A stretch of 64,000 nucleotides of DNA, taken from the IMG/VR virus record IMGVR_UViG_3300047095_000666, positions 33,886-97,885 of that record; one strand, 5' to 3'. The DNA is from a virus. Positions 1 through 47,846 of this stretch are shown here, in pieces. Position 1 is the first letter of the stretch. Every line of letters begins with the position of its first letter. The notes under the pieces were generated by a model that saw only the letters and a list, made by a program, of their open reading frames with translations, did no database searches and was not told the origin of the DNA. Made by a program: the position numbers and the translations under genes.

Positions 1-769
1 CATCCTTGTCGATGCCGCTGATCGTGATGGGCTTGACGATCTGCTTCTTCGGGTCTACGAACTCCTTGATGAACTCCTCGGTGCCGTGCTCGAACTTCCA
101 GCGGTGGAGCTCGGACGATGCCGCCAGCGACTCCTTGTAGGTGATCTCCAGACCGTTGTTGAGGTAGGCGGTCTCGCGGAGGAGCTTGATCACCTCGTCG
201 TTGGCGACGTAGGACTCGAACAGCGTCTCATCCAGAGCGAAGTTCACGCTGGTCCCGGACTTGTAACCCTTGACCGGCTTGGCGTTGTTGTCCACCTTGA
301 CAGTCTTCTTCAGGCCCTCGTTGAACTCGATGCGGCCCTCGGACTTATCACGTCGGGAGGTGACGATGAACTTGCTGGAGACGGCATTCACGCAGGACGC
401 ACCAACGCCATTCAGGCCGGTGGTGTACTCGGTCTTGTTCGCGTCGAAGTTGCGACCAGAGTGTAGCTCACCGAAGATCACCTCAAGAGCGTTCTTGCCA
501 GATTCGTGGCGCTGAAAGGGAACACCGCGACCGTTGTCGGCGACGATGAACTCGTTTTCAGACACCCGAACTACGTTGATCATAGTGCAGTAACCGCGAA
601 GGAACTCGTCCACAGAATTGTTGACGATCTCGCGGAGGCAGGTCAGGGAGCCGTACTCATCCAGATTCGACAAGTAAATTTGAGGCCGTTTCCGGACGCA
701 CTCTGGAAACGGTAATTGTTTAATCGAGTCTGCATCATACGTCTCGTTCTTTTTGACTTTCGCGTTCAT
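1..769 (-). CDS. GyrB-like type II topoisomerase ATPase subunit (5' part; runs off the window)
   Basis: About the first 256 residues of a GHKL ATPase subunit of a type II DNA topoisomerase, which would manage supercoiling or decatenation during phage DNA replication. The Bergerat-fold motifs are in order: an N box with NSVDEF, the G1 box DNGRGVPF, and the G2 box TGLNGVGASCVNAV. This is the GyrB/ParE/T4 gp39 family; the remainder lies beyond base 1, so GyrB and T4-type subunits cannot be told apart here. The start at 769 follows a GAAAGGAAG ribosome site and overlaps the TGA of the upstream homing endonuclease gene as ATGA. Family assignment is firm; substrate preference is unknown. Confidence 0.88.
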   Translation of the reverse strand, partial: MNAKVKKNETYDADSIKQLPFPECVRKRPQIYLSNLDEYGSLTCLREIVNNSVDEFLRGYCTMINVVRVSENEFIVADNGRGVPFQRHESGKNALEVIFGELHSGRNFDANKTEYTTGLNGVGASCVNAVSSKFIVTSRRDKSEGRIEFNEGLKKTVKVDNNAKPVKGYKSGTSVNFALDETLFESYVANDEVIKLLRETAYLNNGLEITYKESLAASSELHRWKFEHGTEEFIKEFVDPKKQIVKPITISGIDKD

Positions 770-1719
770 TTTCTTCCTTTCACAAATTGGTCGATTACTT
801 CTCGGATCCTTGTCATGTGATCCTCAGTGTAGTCTATCCGGATTAACGTTATGCCGTTTTCTTGGCAAAACGCGTTCTTGATGGAATCTCTTTTAAGCTG
901 GTCTTGCTGAGACTCTCTCCAGACAGAATTATTGGAAGCAAATTTCATTGGATCATGTTGACTCCCGTCATACTCAACTAAAATGAATTCATTGCCACCG
1001 GTATGTATTCCGAAATCGAATGCTAATGGTTTTTTATTTCTACATTCATCAAATTTCACTTCTTCTTCAAAGTGTATTCCTTCCTTCAATAGAAAGTCTT
1101 TAATTTGAAGATGAGCTTTGGAGTGTTTTCGCAAAGAATTGCATTTAGGACAACGATCACCACATATGAATCGCATTGGTTTTACGTTGTACTCATGACT
1201 TTTACAGGTCTCACTGTTATGACGGATCAGTATTGGAGTAGCGTTGTTGACGTACTCACCAAGTACTTCGTACTCTCCGCCAGTCATGTTGCTGACTTCT
1301 TTAGCAAACACAAAGGTTGTTTTCTTTTGCCTCTTTGAGCAGATGGGACAAGTTCTTCCTGCGAGTATCTTTACCGGAGCAACTAGGTATGTGTGGCTGG
1401 AACCGTTTTCGTCCGTGTGTTCGACTTCAACTTTTTCTTTGTTATTCACATACCTTCCTATTACCCTGTAAGACTCTCCATGTAGATCTGAAACTTGCTG
1501 TACGAAATCCGAGTGTGTCTTCTTTGGAGTGCCAAAGCATTTAGGACAACGGTCTCCTCTCAGAAATCGTTTAAACGATGTACTAAAGACGTTTCCGCAC
1601 ACCGGATGAAACACTGAAAGTGTATCCACCGCACGGATATACTCTGAGCTTTTCAACTCATAGCCTTCCTGTGCTATGTAAATTCGCACTTCATCTAAAG
1701 TGTGCGGTTTCTTCCCCAT
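766..1719 (-). CDS. Zinc-finger homing endonuclease with Vsr/PD-(D/E)xK-like nuclease domain
   Basis: 317 residues. The N-terminal two thirds contain about three repeated ~60-residue units, each ending in a CxxC knuckle (CPKC 58-61, CPIC 124-127, CPKC 190-193), probably for DNA recognition. The C-terminal part has FDFG (D235), then VEYDGSQHD (E249, D251, H255) and a later IRIDY strand, as in Vsr-fold EDxHD homing endonucleases such as the I-Bth0305I group. The gene is visibly richer in A+T than its neighbours and lies between the topoisomerase gene and an unrelated small gene. Both its own start and that of the topoisomerase gene follow the same 13-bp sequence. I infer a free-standing homing endonuclease gene acquired by transfer; its cleavage site is unknown. 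Confidence 0.75.
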   Translation of the reverse strand: MGKKPHTLDEVRIYIAQEGYELKSSEYIRAVDTLSVFHPVCGNVFSTSFKRFLRGDRCPKCFGTPKKTHSDFVQQVSDLHGESYRVIGRYVNNKEKVEVEHTDENGSSHTYLVAPVKILAGRTCPICSKRQKKTTFVFAKEVSNMTGGEYEVLGEYVNNATPILIRHNSETCKSHEYNVKPMRFICGDRCPKCNSLRKHSKAHLQIKDFLLKEGIHFEEEVKFDECRNKKPLAFDFGIHTGGNEFILVEYDGSQHDPMKFASNNSVWRESQQDQLKRDSIKNAFCQENGITLIRIDYTEDHMTRIREVIDQFVKGRK

Positions 1720-1728
1720 TTCTTCCTT

Positions 1729-2055
1729 TCACTTGCAAAGCAATTTCTTGCGGTGGTCGTCGATGTCTCGGGAGAACCACTTGACGATCGACAGCATTTC
1801 CTTGAACGTGTTCTCCGACACCTCCTTGAAGGAGCTGCACTGCACCGATGGACTAGACCCATCACAGTAGAACACGTCATCCTCTTGGACGGTCCTGTGA
1901 CCGTACCACTTAGATAATATATCGTCGATCACCGTTTGGAGGAATTCCTCCGCCTCCTCCGTCTCGCAGGAGATCCGGACGATGATCGTGACGTTGCTGC
2001 TCGACTCGCCGTGACCTTCGATGAGGGAGACGGCGTAGTGCTTGCGGATCTTCAT
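1729..2055 (-). CDS. Small protein, tandem paralog of the next upstream gene
   Basis: 108 residues, acidic, no recognised domain. It aligns with the product of 2052-2378: both begin MK, a short basic stretch and YAV or FAV. Both also share an EAE(E/Q)FL segment followed by a helix and a (K/D)WYG motif. The start overlaps the stop of the paralog as ATGA, so the two are translationally coupled. Function unknown; the duplication suggests two members of one small phage family, perhaps subunits of one complex. Confidence 0.7.
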   Translation of the reverse strand: MKIRKHYAVSLIEGHGESSSNVTIIVRISCETEEAEEFLQTVIDDILSKWYGHRTVQEDDVFYCDGSSPSVQCSSFKEVSENTFKEMLSIVKWFSRDIDDHRKKLLCK

Positions 2056-2837: not shown

Positions 2838-2885
2838 GCGAATAATACTTATATTCTTTTATATTATATATAAGGGAACTTCGTT
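2838..2885 (-). promoter_or_regulatory. Candidate promoter upstream of the 2787 gene
   Basis: Read on the minus strand, this A+T block contains overlapping TATAAT-like hexamers about 75 bases ahead of the start codon, between a terminator and the first gene of the operon. It is the most A+T-rich short stretch nearby. The assignment rests only on composition and position. Confidence 0.4.
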
Positions 2886-2895
2886 TCACCCTTAC

Positions 2896-2931
2896 AAAAA
2901 AAGTGAGGGATCATGTAGAACGATCCCTCAC
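2896..2931 (-). terminator. Rho-independent terminator
   Basis: A perfect 10-bp stem (GTGAGGGATC, 2903-2912, with its complement at 2922-2931) is followed on the minus strand by seven U residues (2896-2902). It lies just past the end of the gene at 2937-3344 and closes the MoxR/VWA transcription unit. Confidence 0.88.
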
Positions 2932-2936
2932 GCGAA

Positions 2937-3344
2937 TCACAAGGACTCGCAGTACTTCGGAAGAGCGATGCCGTAAAGATCTTCAGCCATCGTGATGATG
3001 AGGTTGAGCTTCAACCAACTCACTCTGCCTCCCTGGATGAGCTTGTCATCCTTGATCACAGACTCCATGAAAGCAGTCATACCGTGAAGTTCCTCCAGAG
3101 CCTTGTACGCCTGATCCGGGTCTCGACAGGTCTTCTCCTCCATCTCTCGCTCGATCATGGAGTAGAAGTTGTCTAGGACGTCGTACTGGCTCTCAAGCTC
3201 GGAAAGAACCATGTCGAGGTTCTTTCGGTTGTTCCCAACCATCAAGTCGAGACTACCGAAGCCCATCTTGCCGACGATCCCTCTCTGGCTCTTCAGCGCA
3301 TCCACGTACTTTTGGATGTCCTGATCTAGCTTCTGGAGATGCAT
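2937..3344 (-). CDS. Hypothetical helical protein at the end of the VWA operon
   Basis: 135 residues, predicted largely helical, with a heptad-like central region around 40-75. The start at 3344 overlaps the stop of the VWA gene by one base (TGATG), and a strong terminator follows the stop. The tight coupling suggests that it works with the VWA/AAA proteins upstream. No family recognised. Confidence 0.68.
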   Translation of the reverse strand: MHLQKLDQDIQKYVDALKSQRGIVGKMGFGSLDLMVGNNRKNLDMVLSELESQYDVLDNFYSMIEREMEEKTCRDPDQAYKALEELHGMTAFMESVIKDDKLIQGGRVSWLKLNLIITMAEDLYGIALPKYCESL

Positions 3345-4600
3345 CACTTGTCCTCCGGGATGTAAACCACCACGTCTCCAAACGGGAACTTCTCCGGGTC
3401 GAGACAACCCTTCGGAGTCACCCAGATCACGTCGAAGTCCGGAGGCACTTCGGGGAATGCTCCCCATCCATCCGTGCAGTACACCATCACCTTGACGTCC
3501 GGCTTGTTCTCCTGTACCCACCGGATTGCCGGGATGAACGAGGTGCCTCCGCCTCCGGTACCCTTCGGGATGTTGTCTTGGAAGGACTCGCCAAAGGAGT
3601 AGTTGTACACGGCATCCACGTTGCAGTCGGCCTCGATCAGGGTGAGGTCGTAGCTGTCGAAAGCCTCGAAGATGTGTTGCAGTTCTCCGTAGATTTCCGG
3701 GAGGTAGCTGAGCATGGACCCGGAGGTGTCCACCGCTAGGGCGACGTCGATGTGCTCTCCTTGAACCGACGGCATGACCATGTTCAGGTGGAAGAACCGC
3801 TTGTTCGGCGGGTTCAGCTGGTACACCGACTTGTACATGTTCATGACGTAGTTGTTGAGCGTCTCGCGCCAATCGACTTTTTCCTCGGTGCTGATCAGCG
3901 ATTCGAGACACTTTACCGCGCCGGAGATGTCGCCGCGCTGCTTCGCAGAGATGATCTCTTTTTCAAGTCGGTTCTTCCACTGACCTTCAAGGTTCTTGGC
4001 TTCGGCATCTCCGACCATCGTCTTCAGCAGTTCGCCGGGGATGTGGTCATCGACGAGAGTCTTGCCTCCGGGGATCATCGGCATGGAGCCAGCGCCGCTG
4101 CCTCCGGGGATTGGAACCTGTTGCCAGTTCTTGCTCTCTTGGGCCAGCTCGGAGTATACGACCTCGACCGTCTTGCCGAAGTACTTGGCGTCGTACAGGG
4201 CCTGTTTCGGCATCCGCATGAAGCACTTCTTGCTAGCTTTCGCCGCCTCGTCGATCACCGCTTGGATCAGGTAGTTCACCACGTAGTCGCAGGCGACATT
4301 CCACAGGGTGATCCGGTTGCCCATAGAATCGACGACGATGATGTTGCGGCCACCCTGACGGTACGGGTTAGCGTGGCCGAGAGCTGCATGGAGCACCTCG
4401 TGAGCGACGATGAAGGTCAGCTCTTCCTCTGGGAGAGTCTTGACGAACTCGTCGTTGTAGTACATTTTCTTGGCGTCAGTCGCCATCGTCGGAATCGTCT
4501 TGGACTCGACTCGCTGGAGGGAGCAAGCGAGGTTGCCGAACATCCGGTAGCTGAACAGCATCCGGAAGATCGACTTCTTGATCATTTCATCTGATTTCAT
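3344..4600 (-). CDS. VWA-domain protein with N-terminal metallopeptidase-like (DUF2201-type) region
   Basis: 418 residues. The N-terminal region carries HEVLHAALGH at 67-76, an HExxHxxxxH zinc signature as in the putative metallopeptidase domain found next to VWA domains. The C-terminal third is a von Willebrand factor A domain with a complete MIDAS: DTSGS at 291-295, a GGTS threonine near 353 and TDG near 377. Such proteins commonly pair with MoxR ATPases, and a MoxR-type gene lies two genes upstream. The likely role is metal-dependent binding of a protein target remodelled by the ATPase. Whether the HExxH site is proteolytically active cannot be judged. The start overlaps the previous stop by 4 bases. 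Confidence 0.85.
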   Translation of the reverse strand: MKSDEMIKKSIFRMLFSYRMFGNLACSLQRVESKTIPTMATDAKKMYYNDEFVKTLPEEELTFIVAHEVLHAALGHANPYRQGGRNIIVVDSMGNRITLWNVACDYVVNYLIQAVIDEAAKASKKCFMRMPKQALYDAKYFGKTVEVVYSELAQESKNWQQVPIPGGSGAGSMPMIPGGKTLVDDHIPGELLKTMVGDAEAKNLEGQWKNRLEKEIISAKQRGDISGAVKCLESLISTEEKVDWRETLNNYVMNMYKSVYQLNPPNKRFFHLNMVMPSVQGEHIDVALAVDTSGSMLSYLPEIYGELQHIFEAFDSYDLTLIEADCNVDAVYNYSFGESFQDNIPKGTGGGGTSFIPAIRWVQENKPDVKVMVYCTDGWGAFPEVPPDFDVIWVTPKGCLDPEKFPFGDVVVYIPEDK

Positions 4601-5931
4601 AGCTTACTCCTCAATAGGTAGTGGTGGGTGTTGAGCAGCCTGAGAACGGCATCGCCGTGTACTGCGTCGAATTTCGTGGAGTATGACCTGATTGCGAATT
4701 GGAACCTTGCAGCAATGCACTCGTCCAGTTTCCGCACCAGTCTGTCTCTCTCGGTCCAGTCTCCGGCGAGCGCCTTTTTGACTATCTCCTCCAACTTTTC
4801 CTTCATCGAGCTGGTCGCGTTGTACGAAGGAGACTCAGTGGAGCAGACGTCTAGGACGTACTGAATCGGGTCTGAGCTGATCTCGGCGATCAGCAGCTGG
4901 AGCATCTCTCTCACCGAGGAAAGACAAGTATTGTGCGAGACCTTCGGTCCGATAGCCATGATCTGCTCCTTGGCGTATGAGTCCAGCTCCGCCTTCTTGG
5001 AGAGGTACTTTAGCGCACTCGTGAGCATCTTGGTCGTGCCAGATTCGTCTCCGCTGAAGGAGTACGGAGTCGCGCTCCCCCACCAGATCGTGTTCTGGAG
5101 GATCTTCTGGATGATTCGGGCGACTGTCGACGTCATGTGCCGAATGTGACTCGGGTCGTTTCCAAGGACGCTTATCGAGTGAGTAAGGATCTTGTTTGCC
5201 ACCTGACGGAGCGTGATGTCTCTGACATCGATGTCATTCGGGTTCTGACCGAAGTACTTGCCATCGATGTATGATAGAGTCCACTCCGCAATCCTCTCGA
5301 TAGTGCCTGCCCTCTGGATGTTGCCGAGCGCAATCCCGAAGAAGAAAGAGTACGACGGGTCATGACGCTGGAAGGTCTTGACAGCTTTCACCTTGCTGCG
5401 CTTACGCTGTTTGGTGAAGTACGAGTGGTACTCAAAGGAGCAACCGATAGAATCCTCCGTGGAGTACTCCGAGCAGAGTTTTAGAAGATGAATTCGAGTC
5501 TCGTCTTCTATGTCGAACCGGATCCTCTGGATGAAGTTCCTGTTGTCGATGTCGCTTGTCTCGTGCCACAGCACCGTACTCATGGTGCTCTCGTAGAACT
5601 CGGACAGCATCCCCGGAGCGGTGATGTACTTGACGCTGTACTTGCTCTTGTCGAGATCCCCGACGTCGACATTGCCGACGCGTAGGAGCAGGTTGCTTAC
5701 CAGCAGGTTCTCCTTGTAAAAGTTGAGATCGACCGGCTTGCTGGCTGAGTTCTTGATCGGGTTCTGGAGGAATCCGATCTTGTTGATCGAGCGCAGCACG
5801 TTGTTCACGGTCAGCCTCTCTCCGTGCATGCGCTTGAGCAGCGTATAGATCTTGTTGAAATCGTTGCTGAGAGTGAAGTCCAGATCCTGGAGCATAGAAA
5901 TTCTCGCAACGTCTTCGATGATTCCTTCCAT
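4597..5931 (-). CDS. Hypothetical protein between MoxR-type ATPase and VWA genes
   Basis: 444 residues, with no membrane segment, signal peptide or motif that I recognise; mostly helical in appearance. It starts after a GGATG ribosome site and ends in an ATGA overlap with the VWA gene, so those two are coupled. A hairpin with a U run separates it from the upstream AAA gene, which may lower its expression relative to the ATPase. In bacterial MoxR/VWA operons the gene in this position is often a dedicated partner; that role is inferred from position only. Confidence 0.72.
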   Translation of the reverse strand: MEGIIEDVARISMLQDLDFTLSNDFNKIYTLLKRMHGERLTVNNVLRSINKIGFLQNPIKNSASKPVDLNFYKENLLVSNLLLRVGNVDVGDLDKSKYSVKYITAPGMLSEFYESTMSTVLWHETSDIDNRNFIQRIRFDIEDETRIHLLKLCSEYSTEDSIGCSFEYHSYFTKQRKRSKVKAVKTFQRHDPSYSFFFGIALGNIQRAGTIERIAEWTLSYIDGKYFGQNPNDIDVRDITLRQVANKILTHSISVLGNDPSHIRHMTSTVARIIQKILQNTIWWGSATPYSFSGDESGTTKMLTSALKYLSKKAELDSYAKEQIMAIGPKVSHNTCLSSVREMLQLLIAEISSDPIQYVLDVCSTESPSYNATSSMKEKLEEIVKKALAGDWTERDRLVRKLDECIAARFQFAIRSYSTKFDAVHGDAVLRLLNTHHYLLRSKL

Positions 5932-5943
5932 TTTTCATCCTTC

Positions 5944-5977
5944 AAAAAAAGTCGAGAACGCCGCTAGGACGCTCTCG
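5944..5977 (-). terminator. Terminator or attenuator between AAA and 444-residue genes
   Basis: On the minus strand an 8-bp stem (CGAGAGCG with CGUUCUCG, one G-U pair; 5953-5977) is followed by seven U residues (5944-5950). The G-U pair forms only in minus-strand RNA, supporting that orientation. Because the flanking genes look functionally linked, it may act as an attenuator. Confidence 0.7.
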
Positions 5978-5987
5978 GTTCGTTACA

Positions 5988-7076
5988 TCAGCTTGCCAGA
6001 GGGATCAGGTGCTTGACGCGGTCGTAGAAGACCTCGAAACGCTTCTTCACCTTCTCGGACTTGCTGCCGATGATGGGCAGCTTGTTGCCGGTGAACTCCT
6101 TGAACGCGGCGACGCGCAGCTCGTCTTGCGGGATCTTCTCCAGATAGCGGTACACTGCGAGGAGCATGTCCTCGGTCGGCGGCTTCTTGAGACTCTGGAA
6201 GTGATACACCAGAGCTGTGTTGATGCCGTAGATGGCCGAAGTGTCTTCCGGCAGGTCGTAGTTCTTGTTCATGTCGAGGACGGTGGCGGTGTCCACGACA
6301 CCGTTCAGCAGCTCCATGTAAGCCCAGAAGTCCAGACCGGCACCCTCGCCTACGGTGCCGAAGATCGTCTCGCGCTTCTCTGCGTCGGGCAGGTTGAAGT
6401 CGAGGATCTTAGACACGTACTCCCAGGTCCGGGGGCTCGGGAAAGCCTTGGACTTGGAAGCGGGGTCGAACTTGTGCAGCAGGTCTTCGCGGAAGCCGAG
6501 GAAGCCGAGGATGGATTTGTCCATCTTGTTCTCGTAAGCCCACGGCTTCCACTTCTCGAAGGAGACCTCCAGTTCAAGGTGGATCATCCGGTTGGCGAGC
6601 GGAGCCGCCATCTTAAAGACAATGCCTTTGTCGTTCTCACGGTTACCAGCACCGATGATCGAAGCACCTTCCGGGAGGACGTAGTCGCCGATGCGGCGGT
6701 CGAGGATGAGCTGGTAAGCAGCAGCTTGGATCAGCGGAGGAGCAGAGGACAGCTCGTCGAGCATGATCACGCCCATCCAGTCCGGATCGGTCGGCAGCAT
6801 CGCCGGGGTCAGCCAGACCGCTTGTTGGGTCTTCGGATTCGGGTACAGGATGCCGCGCAGGTCGCTCGGCTCCAGCTGGGACAGTCGGATGTCGATGTGC
6901 TCGAACTTCTGACCTTCGTAGTCTTCGCCCAGCTCCTTCTTGATATCTTCTGTCATCTCGTCGGCGATCTGACGCACGATCGAGCTCTTGCCAGCGCCAG
7001 CCGGACCCCACACCATCACGGGAAGCTTGTTCAGGATGATCTCTTTCAGGGTCGTCTTGAGGCTATCAACAAACAT
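5988..7076 (-). CDS. MoxR-type AAA+ ATPase
   Basis: 362 residues of a single AAA+ module: Walker A GPAGAGKSS at 24-32, Walker B VIMLDE at 103-108, sensor-1 GAGNR at 142-146 and an ANR segment near 161 that may supply the arginine finger. The overall order fits the MoxR/RavA clade, whose members hydrolyse ATP to remodel protein complexes together with VWA partners. The VWA partner is encoded two genes downstream. The start has an AAAGGTG ribosome site, and the upstream 130 bases separate it from divergent plus-strand fibre genes. The target in the phage cycle is unknown. Confidence 0.88.
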   Translation of the reverse strand: MFVDSLKTTLKEIILNKLPVMVWGPAGAGKSSIVRQIADEMTEDIKKELGEDYEGQKFEHIDIRLSQLEPSDLRGILYPNPKTQQAVWLTPAMLPTDPDWMGVIMLDELSSAPPLIQAAAYQLILDRRIGDYVLPEGASIIGAGNRENDKGIVFKMAAPLANRMIHLELEVSFEKWKPWAYENKMDKSILGFLGFREDLLHKFDPASKSKAFPSPRTWEYVSKILDFNLPDAEKRETIFGTVGEGAGLDFWAYMELLNGVVDTATVLDMNKNYDLPEDTSAIYGINTALVYHFQSLKKPPTEDMLLAVYRYLEKIPQDELRVAAFKEFTGNKLPIIGSKSEKVKKRFEVFYDRVKHLIPLAS

Positions 7077-7214
7077 ATTCGTTCACCTTTCATTGTCGAG
7101 TTTACGATGACAGACGGATGTCTTCATCAATTATATCATATATTTGCGACCTTCGCTTTGGAATTTTTGGCCAGCCCAGCCCCAACAGCTAATTAATTTC
7201 TTTAGTCTTTCCGG
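7077..7214. promoter_or_regulatory. Divergent intergenic region
   Basis: 138 bases between the minus-strand AAA gene and the first plus-strand fibre gene. It contains an A+T-rich core at 7125-7144 that reads AATATATGATATAA on the minus strand, close to the GATATATNAT element seen elsewhere in this window. Divergent promoters are expected here; no operator-like palindrome stands out. Confidence 0.4.
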
Positions 7215-7679
7215 ATGACGATACAAATGGGAAAGTTTTATCACACTGTATCTCAATCGTCGACGGGTAGCACAGCAACCGGGACGAACACAGCGGACCC
7301 GATCATCGAACTCAATGGCGACGTGCTCGGCTACGGCCCAGCATCAGAGGTGTTGACATCGATTGCTCCCACTGGAGTTGTACCCGGCATCTATTCTGCC
7401 GTCGAGGTAAATGAGAAAGGACAAGTCGTAAAGGGGTACACGGCGGAGGTCAACATGGGCCTTGCCATACGGAAATTCAATTTCGTCTACCCCGCTCAGA
7501 GATGGAGAGTTGTTCACAACCTGGGAACGACAGATTTCACAGAATCCATCAAAAACAGCGAAGGGCTGAAGCTTTTCGCAAACATCAGAATAGTTGATAG
7601 CAACGAATTCTGGGTCGAACTAACGGAACCGGAAGTCGGATCGGTTGTTGTGACATTCGACTTGTCGTCTGCGGCATGA
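7215..7679 (+). CDS. Virion/tail-fibre-associated protein with shared fibre domain
   Basis: 154 residues. The C-terminal ~60 residues (WRVVHNLG onward, with an FWVELTEP strand and a hydrophobic end) match in pattern a domain also present in the two large fibre proteins that follow (VINHGLN and WTVNHGLN segments). This beta-rich domain is common in phage fibres. The N-terminal half is Ser/Thr/Gly-rich. An alternative start at 7227 (MGKFYH) has better spacing from a GGA sequence and may be the true one. First gene of the fibre cluster. Confidence 0.65.
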   Translation: MTIQMGKFYHTVSQSSTGSTATGTNTADPIIELNGDVLGYGPASEVLTSIAPTGVVPGIYSAVEVNEKGQVVKGYTAEVNMGLAIRKFNFVYPAQRWRVVHNLGTTDFTESIKNSEGLKLFANIRIVDSNEFWVELTEPEVGSVVVTFDLSSAA

Positions 7680-7722
7680 TCGCAGCTGTCAATGACGTTC
7701 CCTAACCTAAAAAGGATCCATC

Positions 7723-9531
7723 ATGGCATTTCCGAAGTTTCATGGCATTACCCTTGCCAATAACAGCTGGATCGAGAATGCTCACTTTGAGCGCCTCGCA
7801 GCTGACCCCGTGCCTGCCGCTGCTGGCCGTGTCTGGTTCAACACTACCGAGAAGAAGCTGAAGTTCTCCAGCCTCGACGCCTCCGGCGCCGTGGTTACTT
7901 ATGCCTTCACGAACACTGTTGAGCTGGCCGCTGCTCTGGCAGAAGCCAAGGCTTACTCCGACCAGATCAAGCAAGAACTGCTCGGCGGTATCCCGCCCGA
8001 GACGCTGGACACGATCACTGAGATCGCAGGTGCTCTCCAAAACAATCCCGACATCGTCAACGTCCTGAAGCAATTCTCGACGGATGCCGTTGAAGCCGCC
8101 AAGCAAGCCATCCGTGGCGAAGTTTCCGGTGCCTTCGACACTCTGGAAGAGATCGAAGTTGCGCTGAACCGCATCGATGGTGCTGACACCGTCGAAGGTT
8201 CCTTCCGCAAGGCCGTTCTGGACGAAGCGAATGCTCGCTCCTCCGGCGACCAGAACCTTCAGAACCAGATCGGCGCACCGGTCTCCCTGACCACCGACGC
8301 CAAGGGCAACCTCGTTGCCGCGATCAACGAACTCGACGCTCACGTCGATGCTGAAGTTGCTCGTGCTACCGCTGCTGAAACCGCTCTGGATGACCGTGTT
8401 ACCACGGTCGAAGGTCAAGTCAACGGCAAGATCGGCGACCTGACCACCCTGCACACCGACGAGAAGGGCACCATCGTTGGCGCTCTGAACGAAGTGCAGG
8501 ACGAGCTGGACGCTGAAGTCGCTGCCCGCACTTCCGCTGTCGCTGCCGAGAAGACTCGCGCTGAAGCTGCTGAAGCTCAGCTGACCACCGATCTGGCTGC
8601 TGAAGTTGCTCGTGCTACCGCTGCCGAGCAACAACTGACCTCCGATCTGGCCACTGAAGTCGCTGCCCGCACTTCCGCTGTCGCTGCCGAGAAGACTCGC
8701 GCTGAAGCTGCTGAAGCTCAGCTGACCACCGATCTGGCTGCTGAAGTTGCTCGTGCTACCGCTGCCGAGCAGGCCGAAGCTGCTCGTGCCCAGTCCGCTG
8801 AGCAAACCCTGACCACCAACCTCGCCGCCGAGGTTTCCCGTGCTCAGGCTGCGGAACAGACCCTCACGACCAATCTGGCCGCTGAAGTCTCCCGCGCACA
8901 AGCTGCCGAGCAGGCCGAAGCCACCCGCGCTCAGTCTGCCGAAGCTCAGCTGACCACCGATCTGGCTGCTGAAGTCTCCAACCGTATCGCCGCTGTCGCT
9001 GCCGAGAAGACCCGCGCTGAAACCGCCGAGTCCGCTCTGCAAGCTGCCATCACCGCCGAAGCCAACCGTGCTCAAGGCGTCGAAGGCTCCCTGACCGCGC
9101 TGACCACGACTGCGAAGACCTCTCTGGTCGAGGCAATCAACGAGCTGGATTCCGATCTGGCGGCTGAAGTCTCTGCTCGCACCGCTGCGGTGGCCGCTGA
9201 GAAGACTCGTGCTGAAGCTGCTGAAGCTCAGCTCACGTCCGATCTGTCTGCCGAAGCTGCTGCTCGCGCTGCTGCCGACTCCGCTCTGAAGTCCGCGATC
9301 AACGGCCAGCACTTCACCTTCACCTCGCCGACTGCTGCTCTGTCGCACGTCATCAACCACGGCCTGAACTCCGAACACCTGCTGTTCTCCGTTCTCGTGG
9401 AAGGTGCCGACGGCAAGTTCCGCAACGACATCGTGCCGGTGGAAGAGATCGACTACAACAACTTCCGTATCGATCTGGCTGAAGCTCGCCGCGTCAAGGT
9501 CTCCGTCAAGTCCATGACTGCACTGGCCTGA
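7723..9531 (+). CDS. Long coiled-coil tail fibre protein
   Basis: 602 residues. A globular N-terminus (about 1-110) is followed by a long shaft rich in Ala/Glu/Arg/Thr heptads (about 200-530), with many copies of AEVAR-, TRAEAAEAQLT- and TDLAAEV-like units typical of trimeric fibre coiled coils. The last ~80 residues form the shared VINHGLN beta domain. At DNA level a 118-bp segment is duplicated exactly with a 141-bp period. The start follows AAAGGATCC, and a terminator lies directly after the stop. Role: adhesion fibre or its shaft. Confidence 0.85.
   Translation: MAFPKFHGITLANNSWIENAHFERLAADPVPAAAGRVWFNTTEKKLKFSSLDASGAVVTYAFTNTVELAAALAEAKAYSDQIKQELLGGIPPETLDTITEIAGALQNNPDIVNVLKQFSTDAVEAAKQAIRGEVSGAFDTLEEIEVALNRIDGADTVEGSFRKAVLDEANARSSGDQNLQNQIGAPVSLTTDAKGNLVAAINELDAHVDAEVARATAAETALDDRVTTVEGQVNGKIGDLTTLHTDEKGTIVGALNEVQDELDAEVAARTSAVAAEKTRAEAAEAQLTTDLAAEVARATAAEQQLTSDLATEVAARTSAVAAEKTRAEAAEAQLTTDLAAEVARATAAEQAEAARAQSAEQTLTTNLAAEVSRAQAAEQTLTTNLAAEVSRAQAAEQAEATRAQSAEAQLTTDLAAEVSNRIAAVAAEKTRAETAESALQAAITAEANRAQGVEGSLTALTTTAKTSLVEAINELDSDLAAEVSARTAAVAAEKTRAEAAEAQLTSDLSAEAAARAAADSALKSAINGQHFTFTSPTAALSHVINHGLNSEHLLFSVLVEGADGKFRNDIVPVEEIDYNNFRIDLAEARRVKVSVKSMTALA
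8513..8771 (+). repeat. 118-bp exact direct repeat, period 141 bp, in fibre gene
   Basis: Bases 8513-8630 and 8654-8771 are identical over 118 bp, and the period of 141 bp is exactly 47 codons, so the reading frame is kept. Further diverged copies of the same coiled-coil unit continue to about 9240. The exact identity, including silent positions, points to a recent in-frame duplication. Confidence 0.92.
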
Positions 9532-36213: not shown

Positions 36214-38235
36214 TCAGACGATGATGTCCTCGATCTGGTCCAGCTGGTCCGACTCAAGCGTGATGCCCATGCCAGCGAAGAAGGAGCGGATCACCTGTGC
36301 TGCGTTGGTGATCATCTTCTCGCTCTTGCCGTCGCCCGCAACGCTGTCAATCCGGTCAGGATCGACGCGAAGCAGCTTCTGGAGCAGATTGCGCCGCTCG
36401 ATGTTGTGCGAGGAGTAGTGACGGAGGAAGTTGATCACACCACTCGCGCCGCCTTCTTGGTTCGCCAGCAGCAGCATGTTGAACAGCTCCTGCTCGCCGA
36501 AGCGGATGGGGCTGTTGTTGTGCGGAGCGGTTCCCTTCTTGTACATCTCGTTCGACTTGAACGGGACGTTGAGCAGGCTCACCTGACCGGCGGACCGGGC
36601 GGAGAACTTACCGATCGCCTCGTGGCGGAGCTTGATGAAGTAGAGCGACCCGAACACGAGCGGCTGCTCGATCCCGTCGAACTTCAGCTTCTCCACGCCG
36701 AAGTGGTTGTACAGCTCGATCATCTTCTCGGGGTTTGCGTTCTCGAAGAATGGAGGCTGATGGATCAGCAGACCATTCTCCCGGACGTCGGCGACGTATG
36801 CTGCGATGGCCTTGGCGTCGGTGCCGAGTCTCTCTTTCAGGAACTCGCCTTGGCCGGTGCCGATGATCTGGTAGAATTCCAGAATGTCGGACCAGAGACT
36901 GGCGACTCCCTTCTTGTCGTCCGGGTACTTCTTAACGATCTCGTCGGCGATGAAGTTCAGCTCGTGCTCGTACAGCTGCGAGATGTTGCAGCGACCGACG
37001 ACGCCGAGACTGTTCAGCACCACGTCAGGGATTTCCCCGGTGTCGGAAACGCGGGGCATCTCCTCATCGGGAAGGATCTTGGAGATGACGCCTTTGTTGC
37101 CTACCCGCCCGGTGATCTTGGAGCCGACCTTGAGGGGGACGGTTTCGCGGATCTTGAAGCGGATGATCGTGCCTTCGAACTCCGACTTGTCGTAGCTGAA
37201 TTTCTTGCCAGACAGGTAGTCGGTCGCCTTCTGGTACAGGAACCCGCAGTCGTCGCGGAGAGCGTACCCTTCAGCCTTGAAGCTCTCGATCGTCTCCTTG
37301 ATATCTTTGTACAGGTCCCGGCGAGAATCCAGCAGCGTCTTGATCGGCGCGTTGTACTCTTGCTTCAGCTCGTCTTCCGACAGGTTGGAGAAGATCTCGA
37401 TCGACTCGACCACGCCGTCAAAGTAGAACAGCGTGTCGTTGTTGACGTCCATCTGGCGGTCGTTCTCCTTGAAGTCCGTGAGGACCGTGGAGTAGTTGAT
37501 CCGGCGACGGGAACAGAGCACGCCGTTCTCGATCTCTTCGCCGACGTTCGGGAATGGCTTGTAGTTCGTCTTGTCGCCGTACAGGTTGACCAGAACGTCG
37601 TTGTTGTTTAGGGACACGATGGCCTCGTGGACCGCAGTGTGCCCGAGCTTCTTGGAACCCGTCTCGCTGATGATGATGCCGTCCTCGAAGGTCAGACCAT
37701 CCTTTGCTAGGAAGATCGTCTTCAGGTTGACGCCGTACTTCAGGTTCAGGTGCTCGTCGTACATGTTGTTGTGCGAGATGAGCGTCCCGGCCTCGACTTC
37801 GTCGCCCGGCTCGGTCTCCGGCATGACGAAGTTGTTGGCATAACCGTACGACTCGGTAAGACGAGTGGACGACGTGTGGCACACCACGTCCACAGTCTGA
37901 TCGTCGTACGCGAAGAACAGGTAGCGTTCGTTCTCGCCGAGCGCAATCTCGGCGATAAATGTGGCTTTCTCCTTGAGGGATACGTAACCCATCCCCTGAG
38001 AGTATTTGCCGATCTGGTTCTCGAAGCGAGTGAAGACTCGCGGCACTTCCCCACGGTCCAGCGTCAGAAACTGAGCGAGGTGGGAGATGAACATGTTGAG
38101 TCGACCGCCGTCGCACTTGTTGACGTTGGGCGTCAGCAGGTCTTCCCCGAGGAAGTAGTGCTTCGCCCTGCCGTCTTCGCGGACGTACTGGTCAGACTGA
38201 GTATCCGACTTTTTGACTGCTTTTTTCTTCGCCAT
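36214..38235 (-). CDS. RNA polymerase beta subunit, C-terminal part
   Basis: 673 residues matching the second half of bacterial beta. Landmarks: FEDGIIISE at 183-191 (beta FEDAIVISE), GRVGNKGVIS at 376-385 (beta GRHGNKGVIS), VVLNSLGVVGRCNISQL near 405-421, and a late LYFIKL followed by FSARSAG and RFGEQE, matching the KMHARSTG and GQRFGEME regions. The N-terminal half of beta (lobe and Rif region) is absent and must be encoded elsewhere. Split beta is a phiKZ-group feature. Start after AGGAGATATGG. The gene overlaps the upstream small gene by 44 bases. Confidence 0.93.
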   Translation of the reverse strand: MAKKKAVKKSDTQSDQYVREDGRAKHYFLGEDLLTPNVNKCDGGRLNMFISHLAQFLTLDRGEVPRVFTRFENQIGKYSQGMGYVSLKEKATFIAEIALGENERYLFFAYDDQTVDVVCHTSSTRLTESYGYANNFVMPETEPGDEVEAGTLISHNNMYDEHLNLKYGVNLKTIFLAKDGLTFEDGIIISETGSKKLGHTAVHEAIVSLNNNDVLVNLYGDKTNYKPFPNVGEEIENGVLCSRRRINYSTVLTDFKENDRQMDVNNDTLFYFDGVVESIEIFSNLSEDELKQEYNAPIKTLLDSRRDLYKDIKETIESFKAEGYALRDDCGFLYQKATDYLSGKKFSYDKSEFEGTIIRFKIRETVPLKVGSKITGRVGNKGVISKILPDEEMPRVSDTGEIPDVVLNSLGVVGRCNISQLYEHELNFIADEIVKKYPDDKKGVASLWSDILEFYQIIGTGQGEFLKERLGTDAKAIAAYVADVRENGLLIHQPPFFENANPEKMIELYNHFGVEKLKFDGIEQPLVFGSLYFIKLRHEAIGKFSARSAGQVSLLNVPFKSNEMYKKGTAPHNNSPIRFGEQELFNMLLLANQEGGASGVINFLRHYSSHNIERRNLLQKLLRVDPDRIDSVAGDGKSEKMITNAAQVIRSFFAGMGITLESDQLDQIEDIIV

Positions 38236-46154: not shown

Positions 46155-47846
46155 TCAGCACGATACGAATTGATTGATGCTCAAGAGCATCCCGACGATC
46201 GAAACAGATGCCTTCAGGATCTGGATGTCGGTGTCGATCGGTGCCAATACAGTGGTGTCCTCGATGGATTCGAGGTTCCCCGTCATGACGTTGAAAATCT
46301 TGTCGTCCACCCCTTGCAGGATGGTCCGGAAGCCTTCATGGTCTGCTTTTGCCTGCGGAGATTTGCTGGCGATGCAGAAGTAGGTATCGAAGTACACCAT
46401 GACCAGACGCTGGAAGATCAGGCGGATGTACTCTTCGTCGAACTGCTGGAAGACGTAGTCGTTCTTGTAGATCGAGTCGAAGCGAGAGTTCAGCTGCTTC
46501 ATGGCAAAGTACAGGTTGACGTTGCCGCCGAAGCCGTATCCCTTGTTGATGGCAGACTTGCATGCAAGGACAGCGTCCTCCACGAGGTAACGGCGGGCCT
46601 TCTTCTCCTCTTCGGTGATGCCACCGACCAGCACCTTGACCGTGACTCCGCTCAGCTTGGACAGACGGACCCGGACCGCACCGCGCTGTGCGGGCAGGTT
46701 GTTCGGGATATCGTCGTACTCTTTGTTGAGCTGCTCGACACGTTCGAGGTAGAACGGAGTGCTCTTGACGAGCCCGTCGCCGCCGATGAACATCGTCTTC
46801 GTGCCGAACAACTCGACGCTCTTACAAGCGCCAAGCTGCTCCAGCTTGAAGTTCTTCGGGTCGCGTACGCAATCCGAGTCGAGATAGATGGCGAGGTCGA
46901 GGAACTCGTTGTGAGCGTTCTCCATCGACAAGTCGTTCGCACGGATCAGAACGACCTTGTTCTTGCCCTTCAGGAAGTCCGACAGACAGTCGTTGACGGT
47001 TTCCTCGTGGGTCACTTCCACGATCGCCACGATCGGACGGTCGGGATGAGCCTTCTGGATTTCCTTGAGGTTGTCGTAGTGGTCGGGGAAGAACTCGTAG
47101 CTCATGTAGATGAGCGGTTCCTTCACGACCAGAGCAGACTTACCAACCTGATTGAAGTACAGATTGTGAATCGGACCGCGATCGAAGGTAAAGCCATAGC
47201 GAGTCGAGTGCGACAGCGGCACGTTCGAGTCGCGAGGGTCTTCCTCGATGCGGATGTCCGAGAGGTAGCTCAGCTTGTTGAACAGACCGGCAATGTAATC
47301 CCCGATCTTGACGTCGTTGTTGTTCGAGATACTGGCAATCGACGTCAGCACGGAGTGGCGGTTGCCGTCGTCGATCTTACGGCAGTTCACGGTCATGTCC
47401 TCTTCGAGGTACGTGACGATGCGTTCCAGCACGTCGATCAGCTGCTTCCGCGTGTACTTCGGAGTCTCCCGGAGACCTGACAGGTACTCATACATGAACG
47501 AGGCCGAAAGCACCGCGCTGGTGGAGCCGTCGCCGACAGTCTTGACGAGGTTGTAGGAGACGCGCTTGATCAAATCGTGCAGCGCCTTGTCCTGCGAGTT
47601 GCTGAAGCGCAGGTTTTCGAGGATGGTGTAGCCATCCTTGGTGACAGTCGGGGTAGAACCGAGCTTTTCGATCAGGGTGTTCGAACCCAGAGGACCGTAG
47701 CTCTTGACGAGGATCCCGCACAGATTAGCGAGAAAGCCCACGGTGCCTTGGTGGAACTCGTCGTCGTCTCGGACTACTCCGTCGATGCGGCGACTGTCTT
47801 CCTTGACCTCCGCCGTACTTTCTTTCTTTTTGAAAAATCCAAACAT
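46155..47846 (-). CDS. GroEL-like chaperonin
   Basis: 563 residues, with the group I chaperonin signatures in order: SYGPLGSNTLIE (50-60), PTVTKDGYTILE (66-77), GDGSTSAVL (105-113), a central FDRGPI, VKVLVGG with a nearby VEDAVLA that carries the likely catalytic Asp, and a late GYGFGG. The ATP-binding residues are retained, so it should be active. It lacks the GGM-rich tail of bacterial GroEL, and no GroES gene is seen in the window. Phage chaperonins are known from a few jumbo phages such as OBP and EL, where they help fold virion proteins. Start after AAGGACTAGCAG. Confidence 0.92.
   Translation of the reverse strand: MFGFFKKKESTAEVKEDSRRIDGVVRDDDEFHQGTVGFLANLCGILVKSYGPLGSNTLIEKLGSTPTVTKDGYTILENLRFSNSQDKALHDLIKRVSYNLVKTVGDGSTSAVLSASFMYEYLSGLRETPKYTRKQLIDVLERIVTYLEEDMTVNCRKIDDGNRHSVLTSIASISNNNDVKIGDYIAGLFNKLSYLSDIRIEEDPRDSNVPLSHSTRYGFTFDRGPIHNLYFNQVGKSALVVKEPLIYMSYEFFPDHYDNLKEIQKAHPDRPIVAIVEVTHEETVNDCLSDFLKGKNKVVLIRANDLSMENAHNEFLDLAIYLDSDCVRDPKNFKLEQLGACKSVELFGTKTMFIGGDGLVKSTPFYLERVEQLNKEYDDIPNNLPAQRGAVRVRLSKLSGVTVKVLVGGITEEEKKARRYLVEDAVLACKSAINKGYGFGGNVNLYFAMKQLNSRFDSIYKNDYVFQQFDEEYIRLIFQRLVMVYFDTYFCIASKSPQAKADHEGFRTILQGVDDKIFNVMTGNLESIEDTTVLAPIDTDIQILKASVSIVGMLLSINQFVSC

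What the first reader, a model, noticed from the sequence alone, without database searches (positions are those of the whole stretch)
2937..7076. Phage-borne MoxR ATPase / 444-residue protein / VWA-metallopeptidase-like operon
A MoxR-type AAA+ protein, a large unknown protein, a VWA protein that also carries HExxHxxxxH, and a helical protein lie in one minus-strand run with 1-4 base overlaps. MoxR/VWA pairs in bacteria act as chaperones for assembling or activating complexes. In a phage such a set could remodel a host complex, a virion assembly intermediate or a defence target. The intact MIDAS and Walker motifs argue that both are active.
Basis: partly seen in the sequence, partly recalled or inferred. 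Interest (0 to 1): 0.78.

Follow-up and report, generated by a model that had tools for sequence, protein, structure and literature searches.

The report
Phage ATPase–metalloprotease chaperone operon, extra gene
A large-phage fragment carries a widespread but poorly understood two-protein machine (an ATP-driven remodeller plus a metal-dependent protease with a peptide-gripping domain), and this lineage has inserted a fast-evolving third gene between them whose job is unknown.

Summary
The genes are real. MoxR-type AAA+ (5988-7076), a 444-aa protein (4597-5931), a zincin+VWA protein (3344-4600) and a 135-aa protein (2937-3344) lie in one minus-strand run. The overlap claim holds only for the last three: MoxR is separated by 56 nt holding a terminator-like hairpin, at a position conserved in two relatives. 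The MoxR/zincin-VWA pair is a known kind (N4 gp24/gp25, AR9 gp028/029, phiR1-37 g304/g305; described by Iyer et al. 2021). In 43 of 44 non-redundant virus loci MoxR lies upstream on the same strand. Zn-site residues H67/E68/H71/H76 and key MIDAS residues are invariant in 42 diverse proteins, so both sites are probably functional. The window is a fragment of a jumbo-type phage, nearest phiR1-37, with the same tail-fibre / MoxR-VWA / topoisomerase II layout. New is the 444-aa gene: found only here and in one sister phage, overlapping the VWA gene, and the fastest-diverging large protein between them (30-33% versus 64-77% for its partners). I read it as a lineage-specific adaptor or substrate. 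An early AR9 promoter and DNA/nucleotide-metabolism neighbours argue mildly against a purely late virion-assembly role; virion proteomics of two phages argues the other way.

The parts
7131..7142 (-). Promoter-like AT-rich element TATATGATATAA, 54 nt before the MoxR start codon
   Evidence: Also upstream of MoxR in sister L004 (GATATATGATATAATTGGTGATG); resembles phiR1-37 and AR9 AT-rich promoters. 6 matches at up to 1 mismatch in the window versus 0.07 expected. The element is nearly palindromic, so these are 4 distinct sites. Not tested experimentally.
5988..7076 (-). MoxR-type AAA+ ATPase, 362 aa (P0002)
   Evidence: phrog_1297 E=2e-91; 28-sequence profile hits midasin AAA domains 3e-47 and the solved chain 2r44 1e-8; K30, E108, N145, R163, R216 invariant; 77% identical to L004
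5953..5977 (-). Terminator-like hairpin (10 bp, then a T run) between MoxR and the 444-aa gene
   Evidence: hairpins in the same intergenic position in L004 (-24.0 kcal/mol) and phiR1-37 g304/g305 (-24.3 kcal/mol, annotated terminator)
4597..5931 (-). 444-aa protein of unknown family (P0003), predicted all-alpha, pI 8.6, no evident membrane segment
   Evidence: No Pfam, PHROG, NCBIfam or phage tblastn match; only sub-significant PADLOC matches. 33% identical, 445-aa orthologue in the same position in L004. AF2 mean pLDDT 50, all helices. pI and hydropathy.
3344..4600 (-). DUF2201-type protein, 418 aa (P0001): N-terminal zincin metallopeptidase plus C-terminal VWA domain
   Evidence: PF13203 and PF09967; phrog_1314 5e-67; AF2 pLDDT 80; Foldseek VWA, midasin MIDAS and NorD, phage homologues and ATV ORF892
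4373..4402 (-). Zincin motif HEVLHAALGH (residues 67-76)
   Evidence: H67, E68, H71 and H76 invariant in 42 diverse homologues; motif in 92/92 full-length virus loci
3362..3754 (-). VWA domain (residues 283-413) with complete MIDAS D291-x-S293-x-S295, T353, D377
2937..3344 (-). 135-aa protein (P0004 without its first residue), start codon overlaps the VWA stop codon by 1 nt
   Evidence: 28% identical 152-aa protein in the same place in L004; no significant family match
2903..2931 (-). Terminator-like hairpin (12 bp, T7) after the operon
2859..2870 (-). Second copy of the promoter-like element (TATATAATATAA), before the next gene

Best explanation
The core is an ATP-driven remodelling protease. 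A MoxR-type AAA+ ring (inferred) drives a partner that carries a MIDAS VWA domain and a zinc metallopeptidase domain. By analogy with NorQ/NorD and midasin, the VWA partner docks on the ring and grips a target through its MIDAS metal; ATP hydrolysis strains the target or the linker, and the zincin site can cut an exposed segment (inferred). Shown: the domains, conserved active sites and conserved gene pairing, plus an annotated early promoter in the relative AR9. The 444-aa protein is most likely a lineage-specific adaptor that brings a particular target to the VWA-zincin subunit, or is itself a substrate (inferred from position, gene overlap and fast divergence). The terminator between MoxR and the overlapping 444-VWA genes would let the ATPase be made in excess over its partners, as a ring needs (inferred). 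The target is more likely a phage or host complex acted on during takeover and DNA metabolism than a late virion intermediate, but this last step is weakly held.
For: Pairing: 92/93 loci, 43/44 non-redundant. Both active sites invariant. Folds: AF2 and Foldseek match VWA, midasin MIDAS and NorD; ATPase profile matches midasin. Synteny with topoisomerase II in phiR1-37, AR9 and G002. AR9 has an annotated early promoter directly before MoxR, and 33 of 34 predicted early promoters were confirmed by dRNA-seq (PMC5312081). phiR1-37 g304 is among the most abundant phage transcripts (PMC4848604). Recurrent neighbours are thymidylate synthase (19/46 loci), DHFR (17/46) and a cluster with a 5'-3' exonuclease N-domain (9/46). 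444: 30-33% identity versus 64-77% for MoxR/VWA and a median of 65% over 62 reciprocal best ORF pairs (a mechanical list that includes some antisense ORFs). Six gammaproteobacterial MAG loci carry a different conserved ~371-aa gene after the VWA gene, unrelated to 444.
Against: No complex, ATPase or protease activity was tested. MoxR was found in virion preparations of Staphylococcus phage DC4 (1 peptide; PMC10638138), and an ATPase, gp265c, in phAPEC6 (6 peptides; PMC7247149; its identity with the MoxR gene is my inference), which fits virion assembly; both lists also hold non-structural proteins (UvsX and GroEL; thymidylate synthase). In phiR1-37 most structural genes are also 'constitutive', so that timing is uninformative. 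For 444 only two sequences exist, the model is poor (pLDDT 50), and position alone does not prove function.
Confidence: 0.55

Rival explanations
1. Virion assembly and maturation chaperone-protease, as proposed by Iyer et al. 2021 by analogy with Acidianus two-tailed virus p618/p892: the pair assembles and trims tail or head proteins, and the 444-aa protein is a virion or assembly factor.
For: Iyer et al. (PMC7824862); ATV p618/p892 chaperone role in tail development (PMC4124505) and a Foldseek match to ATV ORF892; an AAA ATPase in virion preparations of DC4 and phAPEC6; tail-fibre genes next door in the window and in phiR1-37.
Against: Tail-fibre genes are on the opposite strand in the window and phiR1-37, so a separate unit; early promoter in AR9; neighbours in other phages are DNA/nucleotide-metabolism genes; phiR1-37 g304/g305 lack the 'phage structural protein' note that g298 and g300 carry; the pair occurs in phages of unlike virion type (N4 podovirus, jumbo myoviruses).
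Confidence: 0.27
2. Metal-centre chaperone: like NorQ/NorD or CoxD/E, the pair inserts or activates a metal or cofactor site in a phage or host enzyme, and the HExxH domain is a metal-binding rather than a proteolytic module.
For: Well-studied MoxR/VWA pairs do this (NorQD, PMC13036017); 0305phi8-36 orf66/orf63 was called a MoxR-type metalloprotein chaperonin (PMC2147016).
Against: The catalytic Glu (E68) of HExxH is invariant together with the His ligands, unexpected for a pure metal carrier; no single metalloenzyme gene recurs beside the pair.
Confidence: 0.13
3. The 444-aa gene is an unrelated insertion (moron) that happens to sit inside the operon, with no part in the machine. (This rival concerns only the third gene and can be true together with any of the others.)
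For: Found in only two sister phages; other loci have unrelated genes between MoxR and VWA.
Against: 4-nt start-stop overlap with the VWA gene in both sisters; kept with the same neighbours although only 33% identical.
Confidence: 0.3

Closest known systems
Phage N4 gp24/gp25 (phrog_1297 / phrog_1314)
   Same: MoxR-type ATPase followed by an HExxH + VWA protein on the same strand; both active sites kept
   Different: No 444-aa or 135-aa gene; roughly 24-29% identity
Yersinia phage phiR1-37 g304/g305 and Bacillus phage AR9 gp028/gp029
   Same: Same pair near topoisomerase II; phiR1-37 also has tail-fibre genes on the other side and a terminator after MoxR
   Different: VWA proteins longer (611 and 474 aa); MoxR and VWA adjacent, no 444-aa gene
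Jumbo-phage MoxR-vWA/metallopeptidase pair of Iyer et al. 2021 (PMC7824862)
   Same: Same chaperone-cochaperone pair with an N-terminal metallopeptidase on the vWA protein
   Different: Described for group 2.2 jumbo phages; role proposed as virion assembly; no third gene described in the passage read
Acidianus two-tailed virus p618/p892
   Same: Viral MoxR ATPase with VWA partner; p892 stimulates p618 ATPase (PMC4124505)
   Different: No peptidase domain reported; archaeal spindle virus
NorQ/NorD (PMC13036017)
   Same: MoxR ring plus VWA partner; model for force transmission
   Different: NorD is not reported to carry a zincin domain; acts on nitric oxide reductase
MoxR-vWA ternary conflict systems (VMAP, iSTAND, FtsH, beta-propeller; PMC7159879)
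   Same: MoxR + vWA + a third variable protein
   Different: 444 matches no Pfam model at E<1; those vWA proteins are not described with a DUF2201 zincin in the passages read

Membership tests
MoxR-type AAA+ ATPase | Walker A/B, sensor 1, Arg finger, sensor 2 | tested here: met
MoxR-type AAA+ ATPase | Closest relatives in the MoxR/midasin branch of AAA+ | tested here: met
   28-sequence profile: midasin 3e-47, 2r44 1e-8. The single sequence matches Pfam AAA_5 only below cut-off (19.8 of 22 bits).
MoxR-type AAA+ ATPase | Hexamer with ATPase activity stimulated by the VWA partner | not testable with these tools
   needs purified proteins
DUF2201 metallopeptidase/VWA protein | PF13203 and PF09967 above curated cut-off | tested here: met
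   73.4 bits (cut-off 23.2) and 57.9 bits (cut-off 26.4)
DUF2201 metallopeptidase/VWA protein | HExxHxxxxH and MIDAS residues intact | tested here: met
   H67/E68/H71/H76 and D291/S293/S295/D377 invariant, T353 nearly so, in 42 sequences
DUF2201 metallopeptidase/VWA protein | Zn-dependent peptidase activity | not testable with these tools
   no assay
Phage MoxR-vWA/metallopeptidase pair (N4 gp24/gp25 type) | MoxR upstream of the VWA protein, same strand | tested here: met
   here and in 43/44 non-redundant virus loci
MoxR-vWA ternary conflict system | Third component of VMAP, iSTAND, FtsH or beta-propeller type | tested here: not met
   444 has no Pfam match at E<1; no PADLOC match below E 0.01 for 444
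Virion structural or assembly protein set | Presence in purified virions or late-only expression | tested here: inconclusive
   literature on relatives only: AR9 early promoter versus an ATPase in DC4/phAPEC6 virion preparations

The most novel reading that the evidence does not exclude
The 444-aa protein is a dedicated, rapidly evolving targeting subunit that points a conserved phage AAA+/VWA-zincin machine at a variable host target (for example a defence or transcription complex). Phages and bacteria would then use one core remodelling protease with exchangeable third subunits: 444 here, an unrelated ~371-aa gene in gammaproteobacteria.
Probability: 0.2. Interest if true: 0.72.

Novelty: new variant of a known kind. 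Interest (0 to 1): 0.42.

Why it matters
The MoxR/zincin-VWA pair is found in several hundred phage records (647 tblastn-positive for the VWA protein, 836 for MoxR), including model phage N4, and I found no experimental test of its function. Invariant zinc and MIDAS residues across distant phages suggest an important shared step. A lineage that adds a fast-evolving third gene, and bacteria that add a different one, gives a concrete handle on how targets are chosen, testable in N4 or AR9 with point mutants and pull-downs.

Tried and rejected
(1) '444 is a family member missed by simple searches': single-protein and two-sequence-profile searches against IMG/VR, GTDB contigs, GenBank phage genomes and related jumbo records found nothing beyond the sister. 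(2) AF2 of 444 with two sequences was too poor (pLDDT 50), so no fold search was run on it. (3) Large ORFs between MoxR and VWA in other loci: L062 and L073 carry a second VWA-zincin copy, not 444 relatives. (4) The bacterial ~371-aa third gene was tested as a 444 relative and rejected (hhalign probability 0.1%). (5) 'HNH endonuclease' (phrog_1314/RefSeq label): no HNH match in Pfam. (6) Defence-system membership: PADLOC gave only E above 0.002. (7) No N4 knock-down data found in the paper read.

Full report
What was checked. The window is bases 33,886-97,885 of a 97,885-base virus record. The ATPase has complete Walker A, Walker B, sensor 1, Arg-finger and sensor 2 residues, and the VWA protein has HEVLHAALGH and a complete MIDAS. 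Pfam places the VWA protein in DUF2201_N (PF13203, 3e-20) plus DUF2201 (PF09967, 1e-15). The description '1-4 base overlaps' is right for 444/VWA (4 nt) and VWA/135 aa (1 nt) but wrong for MoxR/444: 56 nt lie between them, including a 10-bp hairpin followed by a T run. Hairpins occupy the same intergenic position in sister contig L004 and in phiR1-37. An AT-rich promoter-like element lies 54 nt before the MoxR start and is kept before MoxR in L004; its pattern gives six matches (four distinct sites) in the window against 0.07 expected.

Which phage. Neighbouring genes include split multisubunit RNA polymerase genes, GroEL, a UvsX-like recombinase and a DHH phosphoesterase, topoisomerase II genes (assigned by matches to, and synteny with, annotated phiR1-37 and AR9 genes) and TerC/TerD. 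The RNA polymerase gene at 36214-38235 is 43% identical to phiR1-37 g261 and 37% to AR9/PBS1. The record is therefore probably a fragment of a jumbo-type phage related to phiR1-37. One sister contig (IMGVR_UViG_3300037010_001275) is largely colinear.

The pair is known and widespread. tblastn finds the VWA protein in 647 phage records and the ATPase in 836, including N4 gp24/gp25, S-TIM5, Munch, Phosso, Slicko and Bacillus phage G. Among 93 loci with the VWA protein, 92 have MoxR upstream on the same strand; the exception is L082. After removing near-duplicates the count is 43 of 44, though only 15 pairs lie within 200 nt, so small genes are often interposed. In a 42-sequence alignment H67, E68, H71, H76, D291, S293, G294, S295, G351, G352 and D377 are invariant. 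In 28 ATPases K30, E108, N145, R163 and R216 are invariant. A 36-sequence AF2 model of the VWA protein has pLDDT 80; Foldseek matches VWA domains including midasin MIDAS and NorD and, among viruses, S-TIM5, PBS1 and ATV ORF892. Iyer et al. 2021 (PMC7824862) described this pair in group 2.2 jumbo phages and proposed virion assembly by analogy with ATV; a 2007 paper had already called 0305phi8-36 orf66/orf63 a MoxR-type chaperonin (PMC2147016). The core is not new.

Same locus in relatives. phiR1-37 has tail-fibre genes, MoxR g304, VWA g305, then split topoisomerase II. AR9 has topoisomerase II, then an early promoter, MoxR gp028 and VWA gp029. G002 has MoxR, VWA, two small genes, then split topoisomerase II. 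None has a 444-aa gene. In AR9, 33 of 34 predicted early promoters were confirmed by dRNA-seq, the unconfirmed one being before g057 (PMC5312081). That the annotated promoter before gp028 is among the confirmed ones is my inference. phiR1-37 g304 is among the highest-read genes (PMC4848604), but most structural genes there are 'constitutive' too, so this says little on timing.

The 444-aa gene. It has no family match apart from sub-significant PADLOC hits, and no relative in GenBank phages, IMG/VR beyond the sister or GTDB contigs. Its sister orthologue has the same position, length (445 aa) and 4-nt overlap with the VWA gene but only 33% identity over the alignment (30% by blastp), against 77% for MoxR and 65% for VWA. 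Over 62 reciprocal best ORF pairs the median is 65%; this list was made mechanically and includes some antisense ORFs, so it is a rough yardstick, but among full-length pairs of 300 aa or more 444 is the lowest. The most conserved stretch is N-terminal, LLQDLDFxLSNDFNKxYTxLKR with a few changes. The AF2 model is all-helical but unreliable (pLDDT 50). The 135-aa protein also diverges fast (28%).

A parallel in bacteria. Thirteen bacterial loci hold relatives of the VWA protein; most have an adjacent MoxR. In six gammaproteobacterial MAG loci the VWA gene is followed by a conserved gene of ~371 aa; the three copies scanned have no Pfam match, and the family is unrelated to 444. So a stable core with a lineage-specific third gene may be a recurring layout; this is suggestive only.

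How it most likely works. From NorQD (PMC13036017) and midasin, the MoxR ring would drive a VWA partner that grips a target; here the partner also carries a zinc peptidase site, so remodelling could end in a cut. A terminator after MoxR would let the ring subunit be made in excess. 444 would bring a lineage-specific target, or be the target. The domains and conservation are shown; the ring, the cut, the adaptor role and the target are inferred. Against a purely late virion role stand the AR9 early promoter, the topoisomerase, thymidylate synthase, DHFR and exonuclease neighbours, and the spread over unlike virion types. For it stand an AAA ATPase in DC4 (one peptide) and phAPEC6 (six peptides) virion preparations, where non-structural proteins were also found.

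Verdict. The core pair is ordinary in the sense of already described, although its function is untested as far as I found. The 444-aa insertion makes this a new variant, of moderate interest.

Noticed in passing
window 3344-4600 (P0001); N4 gp25 and many RefSeq phage records: phrog_1314 and RefSeq label this family 'HNH endonuclease'; Pfam finds a zincin plus VWA domain and no HNH, so the label looks like a propagated misannotation.
   Followed up: partly
L062:4578-5843 and 5893-7197; L073:5902-7137 and 7476-8789: Two VWA-zincin genes in tandem after one MoxR, all with intact HExxHxxxxH and DxSGS.
   Followed up: partly
L136:5681-6805, L137:1132-2247, L139:3946-5055, L140:6165-7289, L142:6399-7514, L143:1460-2575: A conserved ~371-aa gene, without a Pfam match where scanned, directly after the VWA gene in gammaproteobacterial MAGs.
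   Followed up: partly
window 1729-2055 and 2052-2402; L004:12343-13407: Small tandem paralogues (108 and 116 aa) after the operon; three similar genes in the sister.
   Followed up: partly
L016 4707-5303, 6993-7691 (record ~23.7-26.7 kb): TerD and TerC genes (tellurite-resistance type), and an HD-domain gene at L016:3205-3774.
   Followed up: no
L128:4508-5581, 5622-6365, 6605-7966; phiR1-37 g311/g313/g314; window 766-1719: Topoisomerase II B is split in two relatives by an inserted gene (an annotated HNH endonuclease in phiR1-37); the window has a DUF2726/treble-clef gene beside an unsplit copy.
   Followed up: partly
window 46155-47846: Phage-encoded GroEL homologue (phrog_5725).
   Followed up: no
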